Origin: Mycolicibacterium sarraceniae
Lineage (GTDB): Bacteria > Actinomycetota > Actinomycetes > Mycobacteriales > Mycobacteriaceae
NCBI RefSeq assembly: GCF_010731875.1
Contig: NZ_AP022595.1
Coordinates: 4,402,001-4,466,000 of the forward strand
Length of the DNA stretch: 64,000 bases
Direction: 5' to 3'
The position numbers were made by a program, and so were the translations under genes. The notes under the pieces are model-generated. The model saw only the letters and a list, made by a program, of their open reading frames with translations. It was not told the origin of the DNA and searched no databases. The first letter of the stretch is position 1; the number at the start of each line of letters is the position of its first letter. Positions 27,993 through 36,046 of the stretch are shown piece by piece.

Positions 27993-29045
27993 TCAGCTCT
28001 GCTGCGGGACGCTGGCCGACGACGAGGTGACCTCGTCGATGACGGCGTGGATGAAGCGCATCTTCTCCAGGACGGGCACCGGCAGCACGAACGGGTAGAG
28101 ATCGTCCTTGCCCATCGACCGGTTCACCATGTTCAGCGACCAGGACAACGGCAACCACATCTCGATCATGTTGTCGAACCCACTGGGCCCCAACACTCTT
28201 CGCTCGTAGGTCGCGTTAGCCGAGGCCAGCCCGAAGGCCGCGGCGGTGTCCAGGGTGTCCCGGATGTGCAGGTAGTGCGCGAACGTCTCGGCCCAGTCTT
28301 CGGCGGGATGCATGGTGGCGTAGGACGAGACGTAGTTCTTCTTCCAGCCGGCGGGCGGGCCCTCGTTGTAGTGACGGTCCAGCGCCGCCTGGTAGTCGGC
28401 GTCGGGATCGCCGAACAGTTCGGTGAACCGCTGCAGATGCGTCGGCGCGGTACCGACCAGCCGATAGAAGTAGTAGTGGCCGATCTCGTGGCGGAAATGG
28501 CCCAGCAGGGTGCGATACGGCTCGTCCATAGACGTGCGCAGCTGCTCACGGCGCACATCATCGCCCTCGGCGAGATCCAGGGTGATCACGCCGTTGTCGT
28601 GGCCGGTGAACACCTTCTCCTTCGCGCTGGACAACAAATCGAAGGTCAGCCCGTACGTCGGATCCTCGTCGCGGCCGACGATCGGCAGCTTGAGCTCGTG
28701 CAGCTCGGCGATCAGGCGCCGCTTGGCCTGCTCGGCCAGGGCGAACGCCGACATCGCGGTGGTGTCGTCGTCATCGGGCCGGGTGCGGGTGAGCCGGCAC
28801 GACGTGCACAGCTGGCGGACCGGCTCCACCTTGACCAGCCAATTACATTCGGCCAGATAGAGATTTGCACACAACTGGTAGTCGGCAGCGTCGACGGACC
28901 CACCATGCTCGCTGCCCTCGCCAGAGGCGATCACCAGAAACGCCATGTCGTCCAAAGAGAATCCGAGCCTGCTTCCGCAGGACAGACAGACCGAGTTCTC
29001 GAAGGCCAGATGCTGGCCGCAGTTGGGGCAGATGAAGTCACGCAT
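27993..29045 (-). CDS. zinc-ribbon putative metallopeptidase (DUF2248/PF10005-type)
   Basis: A 350-residue protein. The N-terminal zinc ribbon has Cys6-x2-Cys9 and Cys20-x2-Cys23, then a second CxxC in RQLCTSCRLT. The peptidase motif is HEIGH at 186-190, with a likely third ligand downstream in EDWAETFAHYLH. Substrate unknown. The ATG at 29045 overlaps the transglutaminase stop by eight bases, so it is the fourth gene of the operon that starts at 36046. The HExxH zincin core beside two transglutaminase-fold enzymes and an ATP-grasp points to peptide or protein modification (inference). A longer start at 29264 would lie inside the upstream gene. Confidence 0.87.
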   Translation of the reverse strand: MRDFICPNCGQHLAFENSVCLSCGSRLGFSLDDMAFLVIASGEGSEHGGSVDAADYQLCANLYLAECNWLVKVEPVRQLCTSCRLTRTRPDDDDTTAMSAFALAEQAKRRLIAELHELKLPIVGRDEDPTYGLTFDLLSSAKEKVFTGHDNGVITLDLAEGDDVRREQLRTSMDEPYRTLLGHFRHEIGHYYFYRLVGTAPTHLQRFTELFGDPDADYQAALDRHYNEGPPAGWKKNYVSSYATMHPAEDWAETFAHYLHIRDTLDTAAAFGLASANATYERRVLGPSGFDNMIEMWLPLSWSLNMVNRSMGKDDLYPFVLPVPVLEKMRFIHAVIDEVTSSSASVPQQS

Positions 29046-29946
29046 GTAGCACGCCCTCGTCGTAGGGTGCGACGTCGACCGAGACGTCGATGGCGCTCCG
29101 CTCGGAATCGGTGTAGATGATGCCGCGCAGCGGCGGGATATCGGCGTAGTCGCGACCCCAGCCCACGGTGATGTAACGCTCGTCGACCAAGTTGTCGTTG
29201 GTGGGATCAAGCCCGAGCCATTCGTTTTGCGGAGTCCACACCGCGGCCCAGGCATGGGTGGCATCCACGCCGTACATCCGTTCCTTTCCCGGCGGCGGGT
29301 CGGTGGCGAGGTATCCCGACACGTAGCTCGCCGCCAATCCGTTGGCGCGCAGGCAGGCGATAGCCAGCCGAGCGAAGTCTTGACATACCCCTTCCCGGGC
29401 GTGCAAAACCTCGCTCACCAGTGTGGACACCGTGGTAGACCCGGATTTGTAGGTGAAGTCGGAAAAGATCCGGGCATTGAGGTCGCGGAGGACTTCGACC
29501 AGTGGTCGGCCCGGGGTGAAACTCGGTGCGGCGAAGTCCCTTACTGCGTCGGTGATTTCGGGTGGACGAAGATCGAGGGTGAATTCCGAAGCCAGGGCCC
29601 CGTTGTGGCCGACCGGGCGAATCGCTTCCCACGGCGCCAGCGCCCAGCCCGCCTGGTAGAGCTCGGCGGGCGGCGGATCGACTTCCACGACGGAGCGGCT
29701 GGTCACGGTCAGGGCGTCGTGGCGTTCGGTGATGTGGAAGTAGGAGCTGATGTTGCCGTACACATCGCGGCTGGTGGAGCGATCGGCGGGCACCGGATCG
29801 ATATCGAGTTCATAGGACAGGCACCGTTGCCCGACCGTATCGCGCGGGGTGAGGTGCCCGCGGCCGTAGGAACTGGTCACCACGTCGGAGTAGCTGTACT
29901 CCGTGCGATGGGTGACGCGGTACGCCCTGGTGCCGGTCGAACTCAT
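29038..29946 (-). CDS. transglutaminase-like cysteine protease-fold protein
   Basis: 302 residues with an N-terminal bacterial transglutaminase domain (RVTHRTEYSYSDVVTSSYGR) and a catalytic core. The triad is readable: Cys188 in REGVCQDFARLAI, His231 in DATHAWAAVW and Asp247 in WLGLDPTND. Such proteins may act as proteases, amidases or transamidases. The ATG overlaps the stop of the ATP-grasp gene as ATGA. Homologue: Rv2569c. Third gene of the four-gene operon. Confidence 0.9.
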   Translation of the reverse strand: MSSTGTRAYRVTHRTEYSYSDVVTSSYGRGHLTPRDTVGQRCLSYELDIDPVPADRSTSRDVYGNISSYFHITERHDALTVTSRSVVEVDPPPAELYQAGWALAPWEAIRPVGHNGALASEFTLDLRPPEITDAVRDFAAPSFTPGRPLVEVLRDLNARIFSDFTYKSGSTTVSTLVSEVLHAREGVCQDFARLAIACLRANGLAASYVSGYLATDPPPGKERMYGVDATHAWAAVWTPQNEWLGLDPTNDNLVDERYITVGWGRDYADIPPLRGIIYTDSERSAIDVSVDVAPYDEGVLHA

Positions 29947-35600: not shown

Positions 35601-36046
35601 GTCCGGGTTCCGGGCTTGACCACGAAATTGCGCACCCAGGACTGAACCAACTCCCCCGGGCCCGACCCTTCCTCAGCCTCGTCGACGGGCCGCAGGTACG
35701 GCTCGAGGTCATCCTTGAGCGCCTTGGGATAGGTGAACGGGAACGTCTCGGCGTAGTCCTCGATGAAGAAGTCGAACGGGTTGATCACTTTGAGATCAGC
35801 GATCAGGCCGACCTTGATGCTCAGGTGCCGGGTGCGAGTCGGAAAGACCAGCCGGGCCAGGAAGTTACCGAACGCATCCTGCTGCCAGTTGACGAAGTGG
35901 TCGGCAGGCTCGACCTCCAGCGAGTACGCCTCGATCGGCGTGCGGGAGTGCGGCGCCGGACGCAGCCGGACGACGTGCGGGTGCACCTCCACCAAGCGGT
36001 CGAAGGTGTAGCTGGTGCGGTGCTCCAGCGCCACTTTGATACCCAT
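32693..36046 (-). CDS. large transglutaminase-like / DUF2126 protein
   Basis: 1,117 residues, first gene of the operon, Rv2566-type. Residues about 1-290 are a transglutaminase domain with Cys188 (IGSCRDSAWLL), His237 (LHAWAEVYV) and Asp253 (IGLDATSG). The remaining 800 residues are DUF2126, including LTIGGEPTFVSVDNRVDEEW, GGTGGGNHITLGG and SPLLRRPDLLVSLLTYWQRH; the last resembles glutamine-synthetase-like or ATP-binding modules only loosely. No signal peptide, so probably cytoplasmic. The gene ends 80 bases before the ATP-grasp gene. Its large size and fixed partners suggest a multistep peptide-modifying enzyme. Confidence 0.9.
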   Translation of the reverse strand: MGIKVALEHRTSYTFDRLVEVHPHVVRLRPAPHSRTPIEAYSLEVEPADHFVNWQQDAFGNFLARLVFPTRTRHLSIKVGLIADLKVINPFDFFIEDYAETFPFTYPKALKDDLEPYLRPVDEAEEGSGPGELVQSWVRNFVVKPGTRTIDFLVALNRAVNGDVGYSVRMEPGVQAPDLTLQTGIGSCRDSAWLLVSILRELGLAARFVSGYLVQLSSDVEALDGPSGPAADFTDLHAWAEVYVPGAGWIGLDATSGLFAGEGHIPLAATPHPSSAAPITGATGVAEATLDFANIVTRVHEDPRVTLPYTEAAWAAINALGTRIDQRLADGDVRLTIGGEPTFVSVDNRVDEEWITAADGPDKRERASVLAARLKTVWAPGGLVQRNQGKWYPGEPLPRWQIGIHWRRDGQPLWNDPALLADPWGAEYDEVEPDAARQVLASIAEGLGLPAGQVRPAYEDALGRLARAVRLPSGDPVESDADLETDTPAARAALLARLEESVDAPAAYLLPVHRREDDAGWASADWRLRRGRVVLLEGDSPAGLRLPLGSISWQPPRPSLPADPIASGRRRLPVERETADAAAAAIEDAADAPTTAMVAEVRDGLLYIFLPPTEELEYFVDLIGRVESAAATVGCAVVIEGYGPPSDGRLESMSVTPDPGVIEVNVAPTSSFAEQRDQLATLYREARLARLSTEQFDIDGTHGGTGGGNHITLGGITPADSPLLRRPDLLVSLLTYWQRHPALSYLFAGRFIGTTSQAPRVDEGRSEALYELEIAFAEIARLSSGEDNPLGHGRSASFAPWVTDRALRHLLTDITGNTHRAEFCIDKLYSPDSARGRLGLLELRGFEMPPHYQMAMVQSLLVRALVARFWEQPLRAPLIRHGLNLHGRYLLPHYIIHDIADVCADLRSHGVNFDTSWLDPFTEFRFPRIGTAVFDHVEIELRGAIEPWNTLGEESTGTGTARYVDSSVERIQVRTIGADRQRHVLTCNGYPVPMLATDNPDVQVGGVRYRAWQPPSALHPTITVDGPLRFELVDTGTGTSRGGCTYHVSHPGGRSYDSPPVNAVEAESRRGRRFEATGFTPGKVDVADIREKQARQSTDVGAAGILDLRRVRTVLQS

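What the first reader, a model, noticed from the sequence alone, without database searches (positions are those of the whole stretch)
27993..36046. Four-gene transglutaminase / ATP-grasp / alpha-E / Zn-peptidase operon of unknown chemistry
Seen: one minus-strand operon encodes (1) an 1,117-residue transglutaminase-DUF2126 protein (Cys188-His237-Asp253), (2) a permuted ATP-grasp fused to an alpha-E domain, (3) a second transglutaminase-like protein (Cys188-His231-Asp247) and (4) a zinc-ribbon HEIGH peptidase, the last three linked by 4-8 base overlaps. Known: ATP-grasp/alpha-E/transglutaminase sets were predicted to make or attach peptide tags (amidoligase work of Iyer, Aravind and colleagues), but the product is not established. 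Inference: ATP-driven ligation plus two papain-like transamidases plus a protease could build and remove a peptide modification. The fourth, peptidase, gene is rarely discussed as part of the set.
Basis: partly seen in the sequence, partly recalled or inferred. Interest (0 to 1): 0.8.

Follow-up and report, generated by a model that had tools for sequence, protein, structure and literature searches.

The report
Ligase operon with a dead ATP-grasp
A conserved four-gene bacterial set, found here in a mycobacterium-like genome, pairs a glutamine-synthetase-like ligase with a partner that looks like an ATP-driven ligase but appears to have lost its ATP-using site; this changes what the set can be expected to do and makes its still unknown chemistry easier to test.

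The parts
32693..36046 (-). Gene 1, 1117 aa: transglutaminase-like domain (C188-H237-D253) fused to DUF2126, a glutamine-synthetase-fold ligase (residues 286-1117 modelled)
29943..32612 (-). Gene 2, 889 aa: circularly permuted ATP-grasp without its Mg/ATP residues, fused to alpha-E
   Evidence: Pfam; PDB 3n6x relative E 2.9e-62; loss of site; alpha-E conserved motifs
29038..29946 (-). Gene 3, 302 aa: transglutaminase-like protein (C188-H231-D247)
   Evidence: Pfam (scanned as 29038-29976); PDB relatives 6g49 (E 6e-8) and 3isr (E 3.9e-7)
27993..29045 (-). Gene 4, 350 aa: zinc-ribbon + Peptidase_Mx (H186-E187-x-x-H190, E249/E253)
   Evidence: Pfam; catalytic residues 136 of 136; model pLDDT 92.2, pTM 0.91; best VIA matches are M34/PPEP-type zinc peptidases
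32613..32692 (-). 80-base gap between genes 1 and 2; genes 2-3-4 overlap

Best explanation
The operon encodes a peptide/amide-bond pathway module. (a) The ATP-consuming ligase is the GS-fold DUF2126 half of gene 1, which would activate a carboxylate as an acyl phosphate and join it to an amine. (b) The ATP-grasp/alpha-E protein is a pseudoenzyme that kept the fold and many conserved Arg/Asp positions but lost the Mg/ATP site; it most likely binds substrate or product, or the active ATP-grasp, and presents it. (c) The two Cys-His-Asp proteins cut or transfer amide bonds. (d) The zinc peptidase trims the product, the role proposed for Anbu in related operons. (e) It is a second layer on top of the active ATP-grasp/alpha-E/transglutaminase set elsewhere in the genome and would act on what that set makes, probably in nitrogen economy. 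Shown by computation: predicted GS fold of DUF2126, loss of the ATP-grasp site, retention of the other catalytic residues, co-occurrence and dependence. Inferred: every step of chemistry, substrate, subunit contact and physiology.
Against: Four Mycobacteriales genomes (G151, G155, G160, G163) keep the degenerate AGR+alpha-E and the transglutaminase beside it, and Mx elsewhere, without any DUF2126 match, so the pseudo-ATP-grasp can be kept without the GS-like ligase. Six of 58 DUF2126 genomes show a single alpha-E match, and L112 has DUF2126 beside a stand-alone ATP-grasp with an intact site, so the fused protein is not always present. The 'dependence' rests on stand-alone alpha-E as a marker; the active ATP-grasp was not checked in each of the 58 genomes. 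The mapping of E663, H710 and E842/R844 onto GS catalytic residues is by motif (recalled GS motifs), not by a residue-level structural alignment. The GCS2 profile comparison was not significant, and the DUF2126 profile found no PDB sequence of note. The fused alpha-E has also lost some positions that the stand-alone alpha-E keeps (R90, N92, N109, T148, R172 of the paralogue). No substrate, complex or activity is known. The nitrogen link is for the stand-alone/Anbu-type set; the window's own upstream region has no GlnR-like box.
Confidence: 0.55

Rival explanations
1. One reading: the ATP-grasp/alpha-E protein of this operon is the ATP-driven ligase that attaches a peptide tag to proteins; transglutaminases and peptidase add and remove it.
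For: Family membership by Pfam. Peptide tagging was proposed for the Anbu-type operon by Iyer et al. 2009 (as cited in PMC6376114, passages). The Y. bercovieri Anbu-operon ATP-grasp releases phosphate from ATP.
Against: That biochemistry is on the Anbu-operon ATP-grasp; the fused type lost the site. Among 26 set-bearing loci the only recurrent extra ORF cluster (100 aa or more, in 5 or more loci) that is neither the set nor, by position, antisense to it was in 5 loci at varying distances; shorter ORFs were not tested.
Confidence: 0.1
2. The fused ATP-grasp still uses a nucleotide or another phosphate donor through a rebuilt site: a new activity rather than a dead one.
For: Its clade has conserved residues that differ from the active type, such as W62, W117, E367, W396 and G398 in 90% or more of 73 rows, and it is under purifying selection.
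Against: The Glu column is replaced in at least 69 and the Asn column in at least 72 of 73 rows, the Gly-rich loop column is a gap in 49 of 73 and the NSSQGGG motif is not kept.
Confidence: 0.15
3. Catabolic/nitrogen-scavenging role: the transglutaminase-like proteins and Zn peptidase break down isopeptide or gamma-glutamyl material, and the GS-like domain re-amidates or makes a gamma-glutamyl-amine from the released ammonia or amine.
For: GmaS (gamma-glutamylmethylamide synthetase) is Foldseek's top, though not significant, match. Induction of PP_2685/PP_2688 on nitrate. Alpha-E, ATP-grasp and transglutaminase domains track urea domains in marine metagenomes (PMC3597751, passages). GlnR-like boxes 50 bp upstream in 3 Microbacterium loci.
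Against: No such box in the window; no substrate known.
Confidence: 0.2
4. Gene 3 is mainly a secreted or cell-wall serine protease acting on host proteins, as reported for the M. tuberculosis protein Rv2569c (PMC11081392).
For: Published assays on recombinant Rv2569c and a deletion mutant (abstract and passages).
Against: Gene 3 keeps a Cys-His-Asp triad, overlaps the next gene and sits beside the ligase genes in many non-pathogenic genera. The orthology is inferred from Rv2566's published identity, gene numbers and the gene order of slow-grower loci, not from aligned sequence. The terms 'active site' and 'catalytic' do not occur in the paper's main text.
Confidence: 0.05

Closest known systems
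Transglutaminase + carboxylate-amine ligase family, example Rv2566 (PMC2588565, 2008)
   Same: Same two-domain architecture as gene 1; ligase nature predicted there from sequence profiles (section 6)
   Different: That section says nothing of the ATP-grasp partner; the GS fold is supported here by a predicted structure
Anbu operon: ATP-grasp, alpha-E, transglutaminase, Anbu (PMC6376114, PMC5666114, passages; Iyer et al. 2009 recalled, not held)
   Same: Same ATP-grasp, alpha-E and transglutaminase families, with a peptidase
   Different: Here the ATP-grasp site is lost, ATP-grasp and alpha-E are fused, a GS-like ligase is added, and the peptidase is a zinc enzyme; no Anbu match in this genome
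Glutamine synthetase / gamma-glutamylmethylamide synthetase
   Same: Fold of DUF2126
   Different: 7-15% identity in the listed VIA matches, 832 residues, fused to a transglutaminase-like domain
M34/PPEP-type zinc peptidases
   Different: N-terminal zinc ribbon; bacterial operon gene; no sequence match to a solved peptidase; other gluzincins score almost as high (7.5-6.4)

Membership tests
GS-superfamily carboxylate-amine ligase (DUF2126) | Glutamine-synthetase fold | tested here: met
GS-superfamily carboxylate-amine ligase (DUF2126) | Conserved Mg/ATP/glutamyl residues (PGxxE, GxxxxH, ExR motifs) | tested here: inconclusive
   E663, H710, E842, R844 67 of 67, but the equivalence to GS residues is by recalled motif; GCS2 profile comparison not significant
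GS-superfamily carboxylate-amine ligase (DUF2126) | ATP-dependent amide formation | not testable with these tools
   no assay
ATP-grasp ligase (CP_ATPgrasp) | Homology | tested here: met
   PF14403/PF04174; 3n6x E 2.9e-62
ATP-grasp ligase (CP_ATPgrasp) | Mg/ATP-site residues kept by the stand-alone family (ExN, Lys, Gly-rich loop, RHxD, NSSQGGG; their roles are recalled) | tested here: not met
   74 of 76 fused rows keep 0-7 of 18. Filed as pseudo-ATP-grasp, not as an ATP-grasp ligase
Alpha-E | Pfam model and ER motifs | tested here: met
   228.6 bits; W552, R555-Y556, E558-R559, R565, E727-R728, P790-R791 kept in fused and stand-alone forms
Transglutaminase-like (papain fold) | Cys-His-Asp triad | tested here: met
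   both window genes. In relatives tested by text pattern only: the Cys pattern was missed in 7 and read Ala in 1 of 83 gene-3/other rows, and was missed in 6 of 68 gene-1 rows; my His pattern missed 48 of the 83
Transglutaminase-like (papain fold) | Transamidation rather than hydrolysis | not testable with these tools
   no assay
Zn metallopeptidase Peptidase_Mx | HExxH and a Glu ligand downstream | tested here: met
   H186, E187, H190, E249, E253 136 of 136
Anbu operon | An Anbu (NTN-hydrolase) gene | tested here: not met
   no match at E <= 1e-10 in G000; 3 of 149 Actinomycetota have one
Pup-like protein tagging | A small conserved tag gene nearby | not tested
   only ORFs of 100 aa or more were clustered; PMC2588565 reports no such small ORF

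The most novel reading that the evidence does not exclude
A two-layer, non-ribosomal isopeptide pathway: an active ATP-grasp/alpha-E/transglutaminase set makes an intermediate, and a second layer, in which a pseudo-ATP-grasp/alpha-E protein serves as receptor or carrier for a transglutaminase-GS-type ligase and a dedicated M34-like zinc peptidase, elongates, caps or dismantles it. DUF2126 came with the stand-alone alpha-E marker of layer one in 58 of 58, 6 of 6 and 14 of 15 genomes of three samples (22, 23; 36, 37).
Probability: 0.3. Interest if true: 0.75.

Novelty: new variant of a known kind. Interest (0 to 1): 0.58.

Why it matters
The families have stood as 'predicted peptide synthesis or tagging' since 2008-2009, and I found no reported product in the library searched. 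If the ATP-grasp of this operon is dead and the GS-like domain is the ligase, assays on the fused ATP-grasp should fail and the enzyme to assay is gene 1. The dependence on the active set suggests what to feed it: the product of the paralogous operon. The set lies in many mycobacteria, so a defined metabolite would add to mycobacterial physiology, perhaps nitrogen use.

Tried and rejected
Rejected: that Mx and Anbu are strict alternatives. They co-occur in 19 of 27 Mx genomes of the Pseudomonadota sample, and in G277 they are neighbours. Only a narrower pattern holds: no DUF2126 with Anbu within 5 kb lies in an Mx genome (0 of 14 against 19 of 44; Fisher p 0.0023, not corrected for kinship). 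Rejected: that alpha-E fusion itself causes the loss of the ATP-grasp site. Two fused ATP-grasps (L223, L224) keep 15 of 18 residues, and their genomes have neither DUF2126 nor Mx matches; L223 nests with the active clade. Rejected: flanking genes as part of the unit; of six window neighbours tested, none recurs near the set in 80 loci except weak MmpL-like matches (25-27%) in 3.

Led nowhere: DUF2126 profile against PDB sequences and against GCS2 (best 1.3% probability; one 210-column alignment pairs the expected motifs but is not significant). Promoter/terminator scan. GlnR-like box upstream of the window set. Neighbours of solo Mx loci: recurrent clusters come mainly from Rhodococcus-type genomes and look like local synteny. 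Foldseek gave no match at E <= 0.001 for either model. Alpha-E was not modelled (two jobs only); no complex was predicted. Literature: the nine searches brought no report of an inactive ATP-grasp in this family that I could see, the only one aimed at that, was seen as a listing of 8 papers, not read. The library is partial and Iyer et al. 2009 is not held, so I do not claim it is unpublished.

Corrected on checking: the row 'AGR2' (dN/dS 0.20) is not the active paralogue, because the loci used there do not contain it; the query must have matched the fused ATP-grasp again. My notebook entry calls it the stand-alone form; that is wrong and no comparison with the paralogue was made.

Rows dropped or limits: Actinomycetota Mx matches at E <= 0.001 were in 9 of 149; two (G139, G003) are short, below the curated cut-off, without alpha-E, and were dropped from '7'. 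Tree rows were filtered to 400 aa or more and under 75% or 65% identity; tree groups and the two groups were defined by the same 18 columns (searches are by architecture), and a few long rows (such as L176, L197) have unsure places. 19 of 64 'stand-alone' rows scored 7 or less; the 15 shown come from loci that begin or end about 1.5 kb from DUF2126 and look like fused genes cut at the locus edge (inferred, not proven). The 18 columns were chosen from stand-alone conservation, supported by the alignment to 3n6x. 58 of 58 rests on frame length and score: 57 of 58 have a frame under 600; G342 (long frame, 318 bits) and G292 (partial, 238 bits) are judged, and in the Actinomycetota sample so is G096. 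Of the 27 solo loci some (such as L098, L109, L113) lie on short contigs. Of the 9 loci with AGR+alpha-E, TG and Mx but no DUF2126, 6 reach a contig end by my reading. Genome counts are not corrected for kinship.
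Full report
WHAT IS THERE. Four genes on the minus strand: transglutaminase-DUF2126 (32693-36046), ATP-grasp/alpha-E (29943-32612), transglutaminase-like (29038-29946) and zinc-ribbon Peptidase_Mx (27993-29045). Genes 3/4 overlap by 8 bases and 2/3 by 4 if gene 3 starts at ATG 29946; genes 1/2 are 80 bases apart. 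The window is G000:C1:4402001-4466000 of a 4.83-Mb single-contig genome; the named relatives among the best 120 proteins for gene 4 are mycobacterial. The same genome has a stand-alone ATP-grasp, alpha-E and transglutaminase set about 98 kb away.

IS IT A UNIT. A scan of named genomes with eight Mx proteins kept the best 80 of 542 loci, with flanks up to 10 kb. Of these, 42 hold all four genes (30 on one strand, 8 convergent in mycobacteria, 4 divergent in Pseudomonadota), 9 hold AGR+alpha-E and transglutaminase but no DUF2126 was seen (6 of them reach a contig end), 1 holds only the transglutaminase besides Mx, 1 has DUF2126 with a stand-alone ATP-grasp, and 27 have Mx alone. In those 27 genomes alpha-E is present in 27 and DUF2126 in 15. 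In 149 evenly drawn Actinomycetota, Mx is over the cut-off in 7 (9 at E <= 0.001), DUF2126 in 6 and alpha-E in 25; all 7 Mx genomes have alpha-E, and all 6 DUF2126 genomes have Mx within about 4 kb. In 180 Pseudomonadota, Mx is in 27, alpha-E in 100, DUF2126 in 58; 26 of 27 Mx genomes have alpha-E (G261 does not) and 19 of 27 have DUF2126. Mx lies within 5 kb of DUF2126 or alpha-E in 8 of those 27 (my reading of the tables; seven of the eight places read again, G326 not). Fisher p values are 1.7e-6 and 9e-7 for Mx with alpha-E, not corrected for kinship. The fourth gene therefore belongs to the system, more by presence than by linkage outside Actinomycetota.

THE PSEUDO-ATP-GRASP. Stand-alone relatives and PDB 3n6x share VLEDN(L/A)R, VVK..GxGG, RHxDLRPF and VVNSSQGGG. 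The window's gene 2 reads VNADWAQ, IKSTVGG, ASVGLRLF and YKLKSVAAK at these places. Of 18 such residues, 74 of 76 fused proteins keep 0-7; the two exceptions (L223, L224) keep 15 and come from genomes without DUF2126 or Mx matches. The degenerate type is one side of a 100/100 branch in 80- and 58-row trees, the latter without 64 columns around the site. It is not decaying: median dN/dS 0.24, within the 0.13-0.26 of the operon's other parts in 14 mycobacterial loci. Many Arg, Asp and Gly positions are kept at 90% or more in both types (D196, R225, R323, D331, R476, D513, W515). The simplest reading is a binding or scaffold protein.

DEPENDENCE. All 58 DUF2126 genomes of the Pseudomonadota sample also carry a stand-alone-type alpha-E, whereas 42 of the 122 others have any alpha-E. 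In the Actinomycetota sample it is 6 of 6 (G096 by score). Among the 15 solo-Mx genomes with DUF2126, 14 have one; the exception is a 2.6-Mb MAG (G174). Alpha-E is only the marker: the active ATP-grasp itself was read in a subset. Both sets share one cluster in L106, L108, L176 and L177. The second layer thus seems to need the first, not the reverse. Against this tidy picture, four Mycobacteriales genomes keep the degenerate protein, its transglutaminase and Mx without DUF2126.

MECHANISM. Most likely gene 1 forms an amide bond with ATP through its GS-like half; gene 2 presents a substrate made by, or shared with, the active ATP-grasp set; the Cys enzymes transfer or hydrolyse; gene 4 trims. 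Shown here by computation: predicted fold, residue retention and loss, co-occurrence. Inferred: the reaction, the substrate, the contacts. A nitrogen role is suggested by induction of PP_2685 and PP_2688 on nitrate versus ammonium in Pseudomonas putida (PMC8050072, passages), by the higher Anbu expression under nitrogen limitation cited in PMC5666114 and PMC6376114 (passages), and by the co-variation of these families with urea genes in marine metagenomes (PMC3597751, passages). The first two concern the Anbu type; the third does not tell the types apart.

A CONFLICT IN PRINT. Rv2569c, which by number, strand and the slow-grower gene order should be the gene-3 orthologue (not aligned here), is reported as a cell-wall serine protease that cleaves E-cadherin (PMC11081392, abstract and passages). 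The paper itself says its domain analysis pointed to a cysteine protease. Gene 3 here keeps Cys-His-Asp.

VERDICT. New variant of a known kind; product still unknown.

Noticed in passing
window 27415-27828: Short ORF matching only part of the MmyB-like regulator ligand domain (PF17765, profile 54-133 of 168), probably a gene remnant between the set and a beta-lactamase-family gene.
   Followed up: no
window 36110-36592: 160-aa protein, by eye an N-terminal membrane helix then a Pro/Thr-rich tail, just upstream of the set; no match near the set in 80 loci.
   Followed up: partly
L094, L095, L097 about 50 bp upstream of the matched start of the TG-DUF2126 gene; L074 at -101: Perfect GNAAC-N6-GNAAC boxes (GlnR-type motif, recalled): 4 of 38 upstream regions against 0.2 expected by shuffling; none in the window.
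   Followed up: partly
L223, L224 (G088, G099): A separate ATP-grasp/alpha-E fusion with a nearly intact ATP-grasp site (15 of 18) in genomes without DUF2126 or Mx matches.
   Followed up: partly
L201-L204, L228-L231 (G155, G160, G151, G163): Degenerate ATP-grasp/alpha-E plus transglutaminase kept with no DUF2126 found in the genome; unexplained.
   Followed up: partly
L174 (G277): Mx, Anbu, stand-alone ATP-grasp and alpha-E in one cluster: two unrelated peptidases beside one set.
   Followed up: no
G000:C1:762249-762548: Short partial GCS2-family match with an internal stop in the window's genome.
   Followed up: no
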